Source: a bacterium
GTDB taxonomy: Bacteria; Ratteibacteria; UBA8468; B48-G9; DSTR01
DNA length: 64,000 nucleotides
Reading direction: 5' to 3'
Assembly (NCBI GenBank): GCA_029551285.1
Contig: JAKPFT010000018.1
Location: 1-64,000 of the forward strand
Within the stretch, counting starts at the first letter, position 1. Each line of letters opens with the position of its first letter. Of this stretch, positions 1 to 54,189 are shown in pieces. Below the pieces are notes generated by a model. That model saw nothing but the letters and a program-made list of their open reading frames with translations, made no database searches and was not told the origin of the DNA. A program made the translations under genes and the position numbers.

Positions 1-111
1 CGTCCCGGATGGAATTGCCCGGTCCGCTTACCGAACGCATCCGCTTTTCGTCTTGTCTTGTATCTGTGCCTTCGCAAATCGTTCGCCAGTTATTCCCTTC
101 CTTTTTTGACA
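1..111 (+). repeat. Repeat family copy A (5'-truncated by window edge)
   Basis: Matches the 3' part of copies B-F (cgtcccggatggaattgcccggtccgcttaccgaacgcatccgcttttcgtcttgtcttgta...ccttccttttttgaca). Confidence 0.9.
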
Positions 112-150
112 CAGTGGGGGGTAATGGCGGAGAGATAAGGAAGGCAGAAC

Positions 151-410
151 CAAAAAAGGAATAAAAGAGGAATGAAAAGGAAGGGAACAAACTGGCTCAC
201 TCAAGCTGCTTCGGCACAGACAAGGACTACGCCGAAATCGGTTGCTCGTCGAACTCATTCGCCAGGTGGCGAATTCAGACACCGCCGAGTAAGGTATTGC
301 GTCCCGGATGGAATTGCCCGGTCCGCTTACCGAGCGCTGCCGCTTTTCGTCTTGTCTTGTACCTGTGCCTTCGCAATTCGTTCGCCAGTTATTCCCTTCC
401 TTTTTTGACA
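151..410 (+). repeat. Repeat family copy B (structured intergenic repeat)
   Basis: caaaaaaggaataaaag...ccttccttttttgaca, near-identical to copies C-F; hairpin ATTCGCC-aggt-GGCGAAT at 257-274. Confidence 0.92.
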
Positions 411-519
411 GTGTAGGAGGAAAGGAGATAAGGAATTGCAAAACCATTGACAGAATTAGAAAAGACCAGGAAAACACTCTTGGTTTTTGACATAACCGTC
501 GATACTGAAAGGGGAAAAG

Positions 520-1392
520 ATGAAAATTCTGCTGGATACAGATATCGGCTCGGACATTGATGACGCTATTTGTTTAGCCTACCTTCTTGCCCACCCGGAA
601 AGTGAGCTTTTAGGAATTACCACGGTGACTGGCCAGGCGGAAAAAAGAGCCGCGTTGGCCAGTGTGCTCTGCCAGGCAGCCGGAAAGGAGATTCCCATTT
701 TCCCAGGTTGTGAGAAACCAATCCTTGTGCCTCAGAAACAACCCCAGGCTCCTCAAGCCGAAGTCCTCAAGAACTGGCCTCATCAGGAAAGGTTTCCTTG
801 TGGCCAGGCGGCGGAGTTTCTCCGGCAGACCATCCGGAACCATCCTGGAGAAATTACCCTGCTGACCATCGGGCCACTTACCAATATTGGTTTGCTTTTC
901 TCTGTTGACCGGGAGATACCCCTTCTGCTGAAGAAACTGGTGATGATGTGCGGAGTTTTCACCAGCAGGCTGGCTGGTGTGGGACCAGGGGAGTGGAATG
1001 CTATGGGGGACCCGCACGCCACGGCTATCGTCTACCAGTCTCCGGTGAAGGAGCATTATTCGGTAGGTCTGGATGTTACCTGTCAGGTGAGGCTGGACGC
1101 CAAGGAGGTCCGGAAAAAATTTCAGAAACCCCTGTTAAGGGTAGTGCTGGATATGGCCGAGATATGGTTCCGCCAGCGGCCAGTAATCACCTTTCACGAC
1201 CCTCTGGCCGCGGTAGCCCTTTTTGAGCCGGAGGTATGCAGTTTTCAAAGAGGCCTGGTGGAAGTAGAACTTGCCAGCCAGCGGCTGGCCGGCGTGACCT
1301 ACTGGAAGCCGGACGAGGGCGGTCCACATCATGTGGCGCTGAAGGTTAAGGCGGAAAAATTCTTTGAGCACTTCTTCAGCCTCTGCGGATAA
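520..1392 (+). CDS. Inosine/uridine-preferring nucleoside hydrolase family protein
   Basis: N-terminal [16 protein letters not shown] Ca-binding DxDxxxDD motif; SD-like ggggaaaag upstream. Confidence 0.9.
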
Positions 1393-8468: not shown

Positions 8469-9254
8469 ATGCAGAGAAAGGGTTTTATCAGGTCTGCTTC
8501 TGGAAGGTCTGGCTTTACCCTGATTGAGCTTCTGGTAGTCGTGGCGATTATTGCGATTTTAGCGGCCATGCTTTTACCGGCTTTAAGTCTGGCCAGAGAG
8601 AAAGCCAGGATGTCTCTCTGCATGAGTAACCTGAGGCAGCTGGGGCTTGCCTTTGCCATGTACTGGCAGGATTATGACGATAATTTCCCCTGGGTATGGC
8701 ATCCGGAGAATTACAACAACGGCCCCTTCTGGTTCGGGGCCATCGCGGTTTATACCGGAGTGGTGAAACAGCCGGTGACCAGTTCCAGCTGGGTTCCTCC
8801 TTACAGCAGTCCTTTTTACTGCCCGACTTTTCTGCCGCTGGTGAAAAAGTATTATCCCGGGACAGGGTATGCTCCCAATGGCAATGCCCGCTGGTTCATT
8901 GGTTACGGGATTTCCGTTTATGACAGGGGTGCCGGCGGTCACCCAGGAATCAGGCCACCCTGGAAATTGTCAAAGGTGACCAAGCCTTCGGAAACGATGT
9001 TATTGACAGAGGTGGCCGGCAGTAGCATCAGCGTCGTCTGCTGCGGGTATAACGATGCCAGAAATTTCCGAAGACACGGCCGCAACGCCACCTTGAGCAA
9101 TGTCTATTACGGCGGACCAGGTTTACAGTTAGGTTGCAACATCTTATTTGTAGATGGCACGGTGCGCTACTTTCCGGACGGAGACAGCCTGTGGAACCAG
9201 TGGCGGTACGGACCCAATACCAAGTATCCTTTCACCTTAGGTTATTACCGGTAG
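8469..9254 (+). CDS. Prepilin-type N-terminal methylation domain protein (H-X9-DG-like)
   Basis: [34 protein letters not shown]-terminal [13 protein letters not shown]. Confidence 0.9.
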
Positions 9255-23999: not shown

Positions 24000-24704
24000 T
24001 CACTCGTAATACCAGGGATACTTACCGGAAACCGGCGCCGGCACATTCTCCTTTCTTACCCACTGGCAGTGACCGTCCAGAAAAAGGAAATTTACACCGT
24101 TGGAATGGCGGAACGACGGTCCGCCCATGTTGCCGCTGACCTCGTAGTTATAATAAATCCAGGGAGAAGACCAGTCATTAACCCCGGGAGTGTAATATTT
24201 GTCCATAATCAGATAAAGCGCATCCGGCTTTTTCACCCTGGCCATCTTCAGCCCCTGGTAGGTCCGGCCGGAAGATGGATAGTAGCCAACCTCAGTAGGG
24301 ATTCTCATGTTGTAACCGTAGTGGCCATAGCAGCGGTCACTGCCGGTAGGTGGTCTGAGTTCACTGGGGCAGACAAAAATGTTATGCTTCTTCAGTCCCC
24401 AGGAGAGTTGCCATGGCTTCGTCTTGATATATCCGCCCTCAACCAGGATGTCTGTCCAGTTGCGCATATTGCCTGGCCCGTAGTAGTAGCCGCGCGGCAA
24501 AACCAAATCATCCCAGTCGATGGCATACATCTGCACGATAGTGGCAAACTGTTTAAGATTGTTAAGACAGGAAGTCTGCCTGGCTTTTTCCCTGGCTTTG
24601 GAGAGAGCCGGAAGGAGCATCGCAGCCAGAATCGCAATAATCGCCACTACTACCAGAAGCTCAATCAGGGTAAAACCGGAAGAACCACGAGAGACCTTTC
24701 TCAT
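24000..24704 (-). CDS. Prepilin-type N-terminal methylation domain protein
   Basis: [43 protein letters not shown]-terminal [11 protein letters not shown]. Start revised to 24704, preceded by ctggaggtggaag. Confidence 0.88.
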
Positions 24705-24759
24705 CTTCCACCTCCAGTGTGACCTCTGTAAATCACGATAAAACCACCCTGACTTCCTC

Positions 24760-25464
24760 CTACTTCCAGTAAATTCCCCAGGGCAAGAGAGTTCTCCAGA
24801 TACCCTCCACATAGTCATTCTTCCGCGGCGGCACCTGGCTGCGGGTCCAGTATTCACAATGGCCGTCAGCAAACATGATGTTGAGACCTTCACTGTGGCG
24901 ATACCCTGGTCCGCCGTTAGGGTCGTTTTCATCATTGTTGTACACCTTGTAAGGGGCGTTAATGCGGGTCAGGGAAACATCCATAATCAGAAAAGTTCTA
25001 TCTGGCTTCTTAATCCTGCTGGTTTTCAGTCCGCTGTAGGTTGCACCGGTGTCTTCGCGCCAGCCGATAGCCGAACCAAGATTGTCATTGTATCCGTAAT
25101 GTCCGAAGTACGCTGTAGAACCGGTTGGCTTTTTTCTTTCAGAGGGGCACCAGAATACTTTTTCACCCTGGTAAGGTTCCTTTTTTACAAAACCGGCATC
25201 CTTAAGCAGCCTGACCCATGGCCGATGGTTGCCTGGTCCATAGACACGGTAGGCTGGTAGCAAATAGTCATCGTAATCCTGGGAATACATTACCGCGTAG
25301 AGCCCCAGTTGTTTCAGATTCCCCAGACAGACTGCCTGCCTGGCTTTTTCCCTGGCTTTGGAGAGAGCCGGAAGAAGCATCGCAGCCAGAATCGCAATAA
25401 TCGCCACTACTACCAGAAGCTCAATCAGGGTAAAACCGGAAGAACCACGAGAGACCTTTCTCAT
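24760..25464 (-). CDS. Prepilin-type N-terminal methylation domain protein (paralog of 24000-24704)
   Basis: Same N-terminus [18 protein letters not shown]-terminal [11 protein letters not shown]. Start revised to 25464. Confidence 0.88.
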
Positions 25465-25649
25465 CTTCCACCTCCAGCATGTAATTTTCCATTTTCTACC
25501 AGCAATTGTAACATACCTGAAAAATTTGTCAAATGAACGCCGGGGCTGTCTGAAATAATCTAAAGGCTGAGAGATTAGGAGAAAAGCAGAAATTCTGGAA
25601 GGGATGCCAGCTTCTGGAAAACAGCCCGAGGATAGTGGAAAAAGCAAAA

Positions 25650-36901: not shown

Positions 36902-36917
36902 GGAGGAAAAAAGGCGG

Positions 36918-37191
36918 TGTCAAAAAAGGAATAAAAGAGGAATGAAAAGAAAGGGAACGAACTGGCTCACTGGAGAGTGCTTCGGCACCGACAAGGACTA
37001 CGCCGAAATCGGTTGCTCGGCGAACTCGCTCGCACGGTGGCGAGCTCAAACACCGCCGAGTAAGGTATTGCGTCCCGGATGGAATTGCCCGGTCCGCTTA
37101 CCGAACGGTGCCGCTTTTCGTCTTGTCTTGTAACTGTGCCTTCGCCATTCGTTCGCCAGTTATTCCCTTCCTTTTTTGACACAGTCGGGGG
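36918..37191 (+). repeat. Repeat family copy C (intact 12-bp terminal inverted repeats)
   Basis: Begins TGTCAAAAAAGG and ends CCTTTTTTGACA; starts 16 nt after the upstream stop codon. Confidence 0.93.
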
Positions 37192-37221
37192 CAATGGCGG
37201 AGAGACAAGGACAGGCAGAAC

Positions 37222-37481
37222 CAAAGAAGGAATAAAAGAGGAATGAAAAGGAAGGGAACAAACTGGCTCACTCAGAGTGCTTCGGCACAGACAAGGACTA
37301 CGCCGAAATCGGTTGCTCGGCGAACTCGCTCGCCCGGAGGCGAGCTCAGACACCGCCGAGTAAGGTATTGCGTCCCGGATGGAATTGCCCGGTCCGCTTA
37401 CCGAACGCATCCGCTTTTCGTCTTGTCTTGTATCTGTGCCTTCGCAATTGGTTCGCCAGCTGTCCCCTTCCTTTTCTGACA
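37222..37481 (+). repeat. Repeat family copy D
   Basis: Same unit; UUCG hairpin 37277-37288, hairpin GCTCGCC-cgga-GGCGAGC 37328-37345. Confidence 0.93.
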
Positions 37482-37516
37482 CAGTGGGGGGAAGGAGAGA
37501 TAAAGAATTGCAGAAC

Positions 37517-37775
37517 CAAAAAAGGAACAAAAGAGGAATGAAAAGAAAGGGAACAAACTGGCTCACTCAAGGTGCTGCGGCACAGACAAGGACTATGCCG
37601 AAATCGGTTGCTCGGCGAACTCGCTCGCCCGGGGGCAAGCTCATACACCGCCGAGTAAGGTATTGCGTCCCGGATGGACTTCTCCGGTCCGCTTACCGAA
37701 CGCATCCGCTTTTCGTCTTGTCTTGTAACTGTGCCTTCGCCATTCGTTCGCCAGGTGTCCCTTCCTTTTTTGACA
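37517..37775 (+). repeat. Repeat family copy E
   Basis: Same unit; UGCG loop in place of UUCG; CCGG helix kept with altered loop. Confidence 0.93.
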
Positions 37776-37881
37776 CAGTGGGGGAAGGGGATAAGGAGTT
37801 GAAAAACCATTGACGGAAACAAGAAAAGAGAAAAAAACAACTTGATGTCTTTGACTGTTCCCGGTACTAAAAGGGAGGAAG

Positions 37882-38424
37882 ATGGAACGAGAAAAAGCCT
37901 TAATTCTGCTTCAGGAAAAGTTACCGAATAAGAACCTTTTCAAGCACTCGCTGGCGGTAGAAGTCTGTTTGAAAGCCCTGGCCAGCCGTCTTGGTCAGGA
38001 CAGCCAGACCTGGGCTCTGGCCGGGCTGCTTCACGACATAGATTACGAAATAACTAAAGAGCAGCCAGGCCGGCATGGCCTTTTAGCCGGGGAGATTTTG
38101 CAGGGGCAGGTCCCGGAGGAAGTTATCCAGGCCATTGCCGCGCATGCTGGCCATAAAGAAAAAAGGACCCTTCTTGAAGAAGCCATCTGCGCGGTTGACC
38201 CTTTAACCGGGTTGATTGTCGCCTGTGCGCTCATCCGGCCAGAGAAGAAACTCAGTGTCATTGACACCGCTTTTGTGCTTAACCGTTTTGGTGAGAAAAG
38301 ATTTGCCGCTGGCGCTGACCGGGAAGCGATTAAGGGTTGTGAAAAATTGGGCCTGTCTCTGGAGAGTTTTATTACCCTGTGCCTGGAGGCAATGAAGAAG
38401 ATTGCACCGCAGTTAGGTCTGTAA
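37882..38424 (+). CDS. HD-domain (HDIG-type) phosphohydrolase
   Basis: KHSLAVEVCLKALA...WALAGLLHDIDYEITKEQPGRHGLLAG...IAAHAGH. Confidence 0.88.
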   Translation: MEREKALILLQEKLPNKNLFKHSLAVEVCLKALASRLGQDSQTWALAGLLHDIDYEITKEQPGRHGLLAGEILQGQVPEEVIQAIAAHAGHKEKRTLLEEAICAVDPLTGLIVACALIRPEKKLSVIDTAFVLNRFGEKRFAAGADREAIKGCEKLGLSLESFITLCLEAMKKIAPQLGL

Positions 38425-51797: not shown

Positions 51798-52244
51798 TTA
51801 GGACGTTTTCCGAAGGGGAAAGGTTGCTTTAGCACTTTCGTCCAGCAACTTTTTTAACCTGGCCAGTCTTCTTCTATCTGCTGGAGAAAGACTGACCCGG
51901 GGCAGATTGTTTTCCATCTTTTTCTTAAGAGTTTCCGGAATCTTGCCCCGGTGTTGCCACCAGAACTGGCCCCGCGCTTTTTCCTGAGAGAGAAAAGGTG
52001 AAAAGTGCTGATAGCAGTCCGGGCAACCAAGGAAGCGATACCGCCGGATGTCCTGCCAGCGATATCCGCAGGCCGGACATACCCGGCCAGTTCGTTTCCG
52101 TTCCTTCCTGACCGGTGTCCGTGTTTCCTCCAGCGAAACCGCCGCGATACAGACCTCCGGGGCGGCCGGGTTTTTTTCCGTCAGGGTCACCACCAGTTTT
52201 GTCCAGCCTCCGGCAAGAAAAAAATCTGTCTTACTCGGTTTCAT
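51798..52244 (-). CDS. McsA-like zinc-finger adaptor (divergent)
   Basis: CPACGYRWQDIRRYRFLGCPDCYQHFSPFL...HRGKIP between ilvE and mcsB. Confidence 0.8.
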   Translation of the reverse strand: MKPSKTDFFLAGGWTKLVVTLTEKNPAAPEVCIAAVSLEETRTPVRKERKRTGRVCPACGYRWQDIRRYRFLGCPDCYQHFSPFLSQEKARGQFWWQHRGKIPETLKKKMENNLPRVSLSPADRRRLARLKKLLDESAKATFPLRKTS

Positions 52245-53115
52245 ACACAGGAATACCTTCCCTTATCGCTTTTTCCTTGAAGGCCTGTCTGATTCTTCCC
52301 GTGGTCGGCCCGGGCCGGCCGGTGCCGATAGGACGGCCGTCCAGGGATGTTGCCGGGATAATCTCCGCCGCAGTTCCTGTAAGAAAGCATTCGTCGGCCA
52401 CATAGATGTCGTGTCGGGTAAGGTTTTGTTCCCTGACTTCCAGTCCGAGACTCCGGCCCAGTTCCATTACTACCTTGCGGGTGACCCCGGCCAGCACGCC
52501 GGCGTGCACAGGAGGCGTGGCCAGGACCTGGCCGTGGACCACGAAGATATTCTCCCCGGTGCACTCGCTCACATATCCGGCATGATTGAGGATTAAACCT
52601 TCGTCGGCGCCGGCGTGATTGGCCTCTATCTTGGCCAGGATGTTATTAAGATAATTCAAAGACTTGATGGCCGGGTTGACCGATTCGTGAAGGTTGCGTC
52701 TGGTCGCCACCGTCACTACTTTCAATCCTTTTTCGTAGTAACTTTCCGGATAAAGTTGAATTTTGCTGGCAATAATGAAGATGGTTGGCCGGGGACATTT
52801 TCTCGGGTCCAGGCCTAAATCGCCCACCCCCCGGGTGACCACAATCCGAATATAACTGTCTTTCAACTTGTTGGCTTTCACCGTTTCCATGACTGCCTGC
52901 CGCAGGGCCTGCCTGCTCAGCGGCACTTCCAGCATAATCCCGTGAGCCGACCAGTACAGCCGCTGCAGGTGTTCTTCCAGACAGAAAATACGGCCCTGGT
53001 AACTGCGCAACCCTTCAAAGACACCATCTCCGTACAGAAGGCCATGGTCAAAAACAGATATTTTAGCCTGTTCTTCTGGCACCAGTTTTCCGTTCAGATA
53101 GATCAGCAAACCCAT
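52231..53115 (-). CDS. ilvE: Branched-chain amino acid aminotransferase (class IV PLP)
   Basis: LLYGDGVFEGLRSYQGRIFCLEEHLQRL; IKSLNYLNNILAKIEA; GYVSECTGENIFVV. Confidence 0.92.
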   Translation of the reverse strand: MGLLIYLNGKLVPEEQAKISVFDHGLLYGDGVFEGLRSYQGRIFCLEEHLQRLYWSAHGIMLEVPLSRQALRQAVMETVKANKLKDSYIRIVVTRGVGDLGLDPRKCPRPTIFIIASKIQLYPESYYEKGLKVVTVATRRNLHESVNPAIKSLNYLNNILAKIEANHAGADEGLILNHAGYVSECTGENIFVVHGQVLATPPVHAGVLAGVTRKVVMELGRSLGLEVREQNLTRHDIYVADECFLTGTAAEIIPATSLDGRPIGTGRPGPTTGRIRQAFKEKAIREGIPVYETE

Positions 53116-53221
53116 TCTCTCCTCCTGTGCCCTGCCCGGGTCCTGTGACAGACTTTAATTTTTCAGTTTTTTCTTGTTTCTGTCAATGGTTTTGCAACTG
53201 CTTCTTTCCCTACCCTTCCCC

Positions 53222-53489
53222 TGTCTAAAAAAGGAAGGGGACAGCTGGCGAACGAATTGCGAAGGCACAGATACAAGACAAGATGAAAAGCGGCAGCGTT
53301 CGGTAAGCGGACCGGAGAAGTTTATCCGGGACGCAATACCTTACTCGGCGGTGTCTCCAGCTCGCCACCTGGCGAGCGAGTTCGCCGAGCAACCGATTTC
53401 GGCGTAGTCCTTGTCTGTGCCGGAGCACTTTGAGTGAGCCAGTTCGTTCCCTTTCTTTTCATTCCTTAATTTCTTTTCTTTTTTTGACA
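53222..53489 (-). repeat. Repeat family copy F (minus strand, single copy)
   Basis: Reverse complement matches copies C-E; UCCG loop; TIRs TGTCtAAAAAAGG / TTTTTTGACA. Confidence 0.92.
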
Positions 53490-53499
53490 CTACCCCTGC

Positions 53500-54189
53500 C
53501 TACGTGATTTTTGTTTTTTCGGTGCGTTCAATCCGGCCATCTTTTAAGTATACGACCTTCGTGGCTATCTGTAAAAAGATTTCGTTGTGGGTGGCGATGA
53601 CAAAAGTGGCTGTCTGCTGCTGGTTCAACCGGCCGATGAGGTCAAGCAGAGATGCTGCCGCCTGCCGGTCAATGGAGCCGGTGGGTTCGTCGGCGAAGAC
53701 AACCTGGGGCTGGCAGATTAAACTCCGGCAGATGGCCACCCTTTGCATTTCTCCTCCGGAAAGCTGGGCCGGGTAAGCATTTTTCTTCCCCAGCAGGTCA
53801 AACCTGGCCAGAAGTTCCTCGGCCTGCCGGCGATAGCCGTTGAGCCCGCTGGCCTGCCTTTCTTTAATCCATAATGGCAGGAAGACATTTTCCCGGACCG
53901 TCAACTCCGGCAGGAGATGAAAAAACTGGAAGACAAAGCCAAAGTTCCGGTTGCGCAGACGAGCCGCCTCCGGGTCAGGCAGATGGGTAATTTCCTGGCC
54001 GTTAAGGAAGACCCGACCAGAACTCGGCCGGTCTAAAATGGCCAGGAGATTTAAAAGGGTGGTTTTCCCTGACCCGGATGGACCCAGCACCACCACGATG
54101 TCACCCTGCTGGATCTCCACGGTAACATCAGAAAGCGCAGTCACCGCTCCGTACTTTTTGGTTAAGCCTTCGCCTCTTAACAGAGCCAT
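53500..54189 (-). CDS. LolD-like ABC transporter ATP-binding protein
   Basis: Walker A GPSGSGKT; LSGGEMQRVAICRSL; paired with a LolC/E-like permease. Confidence 0.88.
   Translation of the reverse strand: MALLRGEGLTKKYGAVTALSDVTVEIQQGDIVVVLGPSGSGKTTLLNLLAILDRPSSGRVFLNGQEITHLPDPEAARLRNRNFGFVFQFFHLLPELTVRENVFLPLWIKERQASGLNGYRRQAEELLARFDLLGKKNAYPAQLSGGEMQRVAICRSLICQPQVVFADEPTGSIDRQAAASLLDLIGRLNQQQTATFVIATHNEIFLQIATKVVYLKDGRIERTEKTKIT

What the first reader, a model, noticed from the sequence alone, without database searches (positions are those of the whole stretch)
441..520. Conserved tail at fixed distance (71-73 nt) upstream of the next start codon at all three loci
Each array ends with gcaaaaccaTTGACRgaaacaagaaaa-like sequence. 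From the first T of TTGACR to the ATG is 73 nt at the nucleoside hydrolase (447 to 520), 72 nt at the HD gene (37810 to 37882) and 71 nt at ilvE (53186 to 53115), although later sequence diverges. The tail also resembles the 5' end of a unit (gcagaaccaaaaaaggaacaaaag), so it may be a truncated terminal unit or an ancestral leader. All arrays share the downstream gene's orientation, and where visible the upstream gene is co-directional, with its stop only 10-16 nt before the unit. This fits an intercistronic control element.
Basis: partly seen in the sequence, partly recalled or inferred. Interest (0 to 1): 0.6.

Follow-up and report, generated by a model that had tools for sequence, protein, structure and literature searches.

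The report
Mobile repeats targeting gene start codons
The repeated "tail" is the end of a small mobile DNA element that has inserted about 100 times in this bacterium, almost always the same way round and about 22 letters before a gene's start codon; related jumping genes in distant bacteria land at the same spot, which suggests a transposon family that finds start codons and was apparently not recognised before.

Summary
The "tail" is the 3' end of a mobile element: ends GGTAGTGTCAAA…TTTGACAGAACC, one to four 300-nt hairpin units between them, about 143 unit matches at about 100 loci. The constant is not 71-73 nt from the inner TTGACR (SD 4.4 genome-wide) but 22 ± 1 nt from the element's terminal ACC to the ATG. 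Of 74 loci with a called downstream gene, 73 have it on the element's strand; upstream genes often end inside the element. Flanks carry 8-bp target duplications (two perfect; z = 5.5). Fifteen relatives have the ABC ATPase-ilvE junction without the element. Downstream genes share no function. The hairpin shows compensatory changes, but in a relative the same element faces genes with the opposite strand, arguing against a sense-strand control RNA. Related MITEs in two other families and full insertion sequences (IS6-like zinc-finger transposase) in Bacillota, Fusobacteriota and a class-level relative sit 20-27 and 23-25 nt from start codons, same end inward; distance to the ATG is tighter than to the Shine-Dalgarno site. 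Best reading: orphan MITE arrays of an insertion-sequence group that targets translation start sites. How the site is recognised is unknown.

The parts
1..497 (+). Element at the nucleoside hydrolase (its 5' part lies beyond the contig start): partial unit 1-141, unit 145-435, tail to the terminal TTTGACATAACC (486-497); 22 nt before ATG 520
36913..37861 (+). Element at the HD-domain gene: head GGCGGTGTC (36913), three units (36917-37193, 37216-37506, 37511-37799), tail to TTTGACTGTTCC (37850-37861); 20 nt before ATG 37882
53139..53494 (-). Element at ilvE: head GGTAGTGTC (53494), one unit (53208-53492), tail ending ...CACAGGACC (53139); 23 nt before ATG 53115
53495..53502 (-). Left copy of the putative 8-bp target duplication, TAGGCAGG; contains the stop codon of the upstream ABC ATPase
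   Evidence: sequence; register supported
53131..53138 (-). Right copy of the putative target duplication, CGGGCAGG (6 of 8 match)
   Evidence: sequence
53264..53422 (-). Hairpin core of the unit (modelled as R1); compensatory changes among copies and relatives
520..1392 (+).
37882..38424 (+).
52231..53115 (-). Downstream gene: branched-chain aminotransferase (ilvE)
   Evidence: Aminotran_4

Best explanation
Each array is a non-autonomous transposable element (a MITE) that carries amplified copies of an internal hairpin unit. SHOWN: terminal inverted repeats GGTAGTGTCAAA/GGTTCTGTCAAA; 8-bp target duplications; an element-free ilvE junction in relatives; insertion with the TTTGACAGAACC end 22 +/- 1 nt upstream of the next start codon, on the same strand, at about 100 unrelated genes. 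SHOWN in other bacteria: MITEs with the same ends, and complete insertion sequences with an IS6-like zinc-finger DDE transposase, sit 20-27 nt (insertion sequences 23-25) from start codons with the same end inward. INFERRED: an insertion-sequence group whose transposase picks sites by the translation start made these insertions; the window's genome received its MITEs from such a transposase, since lost or not assembled; arrays grew by unequal recombination of the internal unit. The distance tracks the start codon better than the Shine-Dalgarno sequence, so recognition may involve the translation start itself, but that step is unproven. For the host, insertion adds about 0.4-1.3 kb of hairpin-rich leader between co-transcribed genes and leaves the Shine-Dalgarno site and start codon intact.
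For: Genome-wide copies, orientation, spacing. Duplications: (8-bp register z = 5.5; L105 GCACTTTT and L063 AACCATGA perfect, three at 7 of 8; 0.08 and 0.19 expected). Element-free ilvE junction in 15 relatives. Upstream genes ending in element-encoded residues or stop codon at 19 loci (e.g. ...GSVKKGIKEE*). Other families: G021 MITEs (L238 has a perfect duplication TTTTCCGA), G008 MITEs. Complete IS: L303 (acpP, 24 nt); Geobacillus, Pediococcus, Levilactobacillus, Leuconostoc and Cetobacterium plasmids at 23-24 nt, with perfect 8-bp duplications in L313, L314, L318, L319 and L326; viral contigs at 24-25 nt. ATG is the tighter anchor: SD 1.0 vs 2.0 nt in the window's genome.
Against: No related transposase was found in the window's own genome (0 matches; 93% complete). 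The link between MITE and IS rests on end sequence, duplication length, position and orientation; the MITE hairpin model does not match the IS. Most duplications in the window's genome are eroded. G. kaustophilus (L319) lies 18 nt from its annotated TTG start, and one Lactobacillaceae insertion (L315, L320-L323) has no recognisable left end, so it could not be scored. The start-codon anchor comes from sets in which starts were partly picked by proximity, and noisy Shine-Dalgarno assignment also lowers the regression slope.
Confidence: 0.82

Rival explanations
1. A cis-acting regulatory RNA or regulon: the hairpin leader controls translation or processing of the downstream genes, and spacing and strand are kept by function.
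For: Compensatory changes in the hairpin (14 pairs changed on both sides; 0 of 500 shuffles reach this); strict strand and spacing.
Against: No shared function among about 70 downstream genes; absent at ilvE in 15 relatives; 8-bp duplications and terminal inverted repeats; opposite hairpin strand toward the gene in G021; insertion sequences without this hairpin hold the same distance. Pairing can also be kept at the DNA level or by mutation copying one arm of a palindrome into the other.
Confidence: 0.1
2. An ordinary MITE with random insertion; strand and distance result from selection against all other positions.
For: MITEs often survive mainly between genes; essential genes (gyrA, pgk, frr) would filter bad insertions.
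Against: A 1-nt spread is not expected from tolerance alone; distances also hold where the upstream gap is wide or divergent; IS copies with perfect, hence recent, duplications on plasmids show the same distance; no copy found inside genes or between convergent ends.
Confidence: 0.12
3. Targeting by DNA sequence: the transposase reads the Shine-Dalgarno motif rather than the start codon (a sub-variant of the best explanation, not exclusive with it).
For: The G-rich motif lies about 14 nt from the element end in most sites.
Against: Distance to the motif varies more than distance to the ATG (SD 2.0 vs 1.0 nt; in the plasmid and viral IS, 9-15 nt vs 23-24 nt). Motif assignment is noisy, so this is not excluded.
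Confidence: 0.3

Closest known systems
BOX elements of Streptococcus pneumoniae (PMC3049150)
   Same: Modular head, tandem middle modules and tail; terminal inverted repeats and target duplications; structured if transcribed; likely non-autonomous mobile element
   Different: Middle module is 300 nt here; BOX is not described as held at a fixed distance and strand before start codons (that paper discusses pneumococcal repeats as favouring regions downstream of genes)
BrickBuilt MITE of Porphyromonas gingivalis (PMC4596501)
   Same: MITE with an internal tandem array plus leader and tail carrying inverted ends
   Different: 23-nt repeats, 19 copies, 49-591 nt from the nearest genes, no fixed position
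IS6/IS26 family, long zinc-finger clades VII/VIII (= h/i) (PMC6807381, PMC7986276)
   Same: 8-bp duplications; GG-starting ends here; DDE transposase with N-terminal CxxC motifs; similar lengths (about 1.2-1.35 and 1.7-1.9 kb); MITEs known in the family
   Different: Transposases here score below NCBIfam's IS6 cut-off; neither review contains the term 'start codon', and one states that no experimental data were found for these long members
TAACTGA repeats of Beggiatoaceae (PMC4679880)
   Same: Intergenic repeats in forward orientation just before start codons of functionally unrelated genes
   Different: 7-nt repeats that overlap the ribosome-binding site; no terminal inverted repeats or target duplications described in the passages read
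Tn7 (own knowledge)
   Same: Insertion at a defined distance and in one orientation from a recognised feature
   Different: One site (glmS), 5-bp duplication, dedicated targeting protein

Membership tests
MITE | Terminal inverted repeats | tested here: met
   GGTAGTGTCAAA / GGTTCTGTCAAA in the window's genome; perfect in G021
MITE | Target-site duplication | tested here: met
   8 bp, z = 5.5, two perfect cases
MITE | No transposase gene inside; many copies | tested here: met
   About 143 unit matches, no coding gene called inside any array
MITE | Autonomous partner with the same ends in the same genome (usual, not required) | tested here: not met
   0 matches to the L303 transposase in own, no PF00872; PF12762 gives a decayed fragment without matching ends
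IS6/IS26 family (for the related IS) | 8-bp duplication and ends starting with GG | tested here: met
   L313, L314, L318, L319
IS6/IS26 family (for the related IS) | Transposase over the family's curated cut-off (NCBIfam 125 bits) | tested here: not met
   45.5 to 82.9 bits
IS6/IS26 family (for the related IS) | Groups with clades VII/VIII in a transposase tree | not tested
   No ISfinder sequences on hand; size and CxxC motifs fit
BOX element | boxA-boxB-boxC sequence identity | not tested
   No BOX sequence compared; only the architecture is alike
Known cis-regulatory RNA family | Match to an Rfam model at its gathering score | tested here: not met
   Only a tRNA in the window

The most novel reading that the evidence does not exclude
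A transposase group that locates translation start sites themselves, for example through the initiating ribosome on nascent mRNA or another start-codon-anchored signal, and inserts in one orientation just upstream of the ribosome-binding site, across several bacterial phyla.
Probability: 0.3. Interest if true: 0.95.

Novelty: new variant of a known kind. Interest (0 to 1): 0.8.

Why it matters
Few bacterial transposons have a sharply defined, orientation-specific target, and none known to me is anchored to start codons in general. This would be a way to insert beside almost any gene, essential ones included, without breaking it; it rewrites 5' leaders across a genome and can be tested with ordinary plasmid insertion sequences from food lactobacilli or Geobacillus. 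It also cautions against reading conserved spacing before an ATG as proof of regulation.

Tried and rejected
Rfam search: no known RNA. IS256 transposase in own genome: none. IS1595 transposases: present, but the ends differ where readable (L293 TATGGTTATTGAG, duplication TTCATTTA). Tail as a solo leader without units: excess hits were further full elements (L212-L215), the rest near the control level. Tail as a promoter: no convincing -10 at the right spacing; rejected from reading only. The single-sequence fold of a window unit was not significant (z = -0.27), unlike the relative (z = -3.64) and the consensus core (z = -2.39). Literature: no paper found for GGTTCTGTCAAA as an IS end or for start-codon targeting by an IS, within an open-access library only.

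Full report
CHECK. The three tails and distances are as stated. The window is contig C14 of a 2.7-Mb, 99-contig genome. Pattern scans give 71 forward and 72 reverse unit matches, none for the reversed control pattern. I fetched 92 stretches around the copies, mapped units with a profile and called genes with a hexamer model blind to the element: 99 arrays. Of 74 with a called downstream gene, 73 have it on the element's strand. The exception, L106, has a Shine-Dalgarno-like GGAGGAGG at the expected place but no ATG after it, perhaps a decayed gene. Upstream genes are mostly co-directional (56 of 66).

ANATOMY. The tail is conserved to its end...TTGCAAAACCATTGACAGAAACAAGAAAAGACTAAAAAACAACTTGAAGTCTTTGACAGAACC, followed by about 22 unique nt with the Shine-Dalgarno site, then ATG. 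The 5' boundary is nearly always GGTAGTGTCAAAAAAGG. The two ends are inverted repeats of each other. Between them lie one to four units in arrays seen whole (31 single, 13 multiple). Distance from the terminal ACC to the ATG is 22.3 +/- 1.0 nt (n = 62, starts taken within 17-29 nt); blind start calls fall at 20-25 nt in 49 of 65 (counted from the list).

INSERTION. Comparing the 8 nt outside each end gives identity above shuffled pairs at exactly the register set by the inverted repeats (z = 5.5; two perfect and three 7-of-8 duplications). At ilvE the duplication reads TAGGCAGG/CGGGCAGG. In 15 relatives, the nearest 79% identical in ilvE, the ABC ATPase runs into ilvE with only a short gap. 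At 19 loci the upstream gene reads into the element and uses its stop codon (e.g. ...GSVKKGIKEE*), as expected if the position is set by the downstream start and not by the upstream stop. Downstream genes include gyrA, pgk, frr, H+-pyrophosphatase and DAHP synthase, without a theme.

HAIRPIN. The unit core folds into a branched hairpin; 14 of 42 pairs show changes on both sides against 6.5 in shuffles (0 of 500 reach 14), and slid controls give at most 5. A covariance model finds relatives in six other genomes of the 35 held for the phylum. The ilvE relatives are named Candidatus Omnitrophota.

RELATIVES. In G021, another family, four near-identical elements carry perfect or near-perfect ends GGTTCTGTCAAA...TTTGACAGAACC; the three with a readable gene side lie 20-23 nt from an ATG, one with a perfect duplication (TTTTCCGA), but the hairpin strand toward the gene is reversed (distances read by eye from the printed sequence). 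In G008, MITEs with the same end lie 22-27 nt from start codons at eight loci; a ninth (L283) has no ATG nearby. L303 in G033 is a 1.9-kb insertion sequence, ends GGTACTGTCAAAAA and CGTATTGTCAAAAA, 487-aa DDE transposase, 24 nt before acpP (acpP named from reading its translation).

THE INSERTION SEQUENCES. The L303 transposase finds 34-38% identical full-length proteins on Geobacillus, Pediococcus, Levilactobacillus and Lactiplantibacillus plasmids. Their ends are GGTACTGTCAAA or GGTATTGTCAAA; distances to annotated start codons are 23 (L312), 23 (L314), 24 (L318), 23 (L324, degenerate end) and 24 nt (L326, Cetobacterium, a shorter and distant relative); L313 has an evident ATG at 23 nt. Perfect 8-bp duplications: L313, L314, L318, L319, L326. 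Viral contigs add sites at 24 (L317), 24 (L330) and 25 nt (L327) (read by eye from the printed sequence). In the scorable cases the end nearest the transposase's 5' side faces the gene. L319 (18 nt to an annotated TTG) departs, and the L315/L320-L323 insertion could not be scored. L317 shows two copies in tandem separated by the duplication ACTTTCAA, as if the same site was hit twice.

ANCHOR. In the window's genome the distance to the ATG varies less than to the Shine-Dalgarno centre (SD 1.0 vs 2.0 nt; slope 0.13); in the IS set the motif lies 9-15 nt and the ATG 23-24 nt from the end. This favours the start codon as reference point, with the caveats given above.

READING. I conclude that the arrays are MITEs of a start-codon-targeting, IS6-related group. 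Shown: mobility features, position, strand, cross-phylum recurrence. Inferred: the transposase that moved the window's copies, how arrays grew, and what is recognised. The closest described group is the long zinc-finger clades VII/VIII (h/i) of the IS6 family; in the two papers read neither mentions start codons, and one reports finding no experimental data on the long members. Membership in IS6 is not claimed because the curated cut-off is not met.

Noticed in passing
19 of the fetched array loci, e.g. L091, L101, L114, L122: Upstream proteins end in element-encoded residues (GSVKKGIKEE, VVSKKE): the element supplies new C-termini and stop codons.
   Followed up: partly
L317 (viral contig), 211-2063 and from 2072: Two copies of the IS in tandem with the 8-bp duplication between them, suggesting repeated use of one site and a possible route to arrays.
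   Followed up: no
L287 (G021:C1), about 2016-2027: A lone TTTGACAGAACC lies 23 nt before an ATG with no second end seen: chance, remnant or scar.
   Followed up: no
G000 contig ends, e.g. C14:1, C95:1, C96:1: Many assembly breaks fall inside these arrays, so unit and element counts are lower bounds.
   Followed up: partly
window 24550-24717 and 25310-25477, with 8508-8582 inverted: A second repeat, 94% identical copies 760 nt apart inside genes; looks like paralogous genes.
   Followed up: no
L303 1899-1963: A long GC-rich hairpin lies near the gene-facing end of the IS; hairpins near that end recur in the MITEs although sequences differ.
   Followed up: no
G015, G013, G017 loci L220, L221, L223, L227, L232, L237: Related hairpins with other ends (e.g. 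GGAAAGACA...TGTCTTTCC), also next to gene ends; L237 is 23 nt from an ATG by eye.
   Followed up: partly
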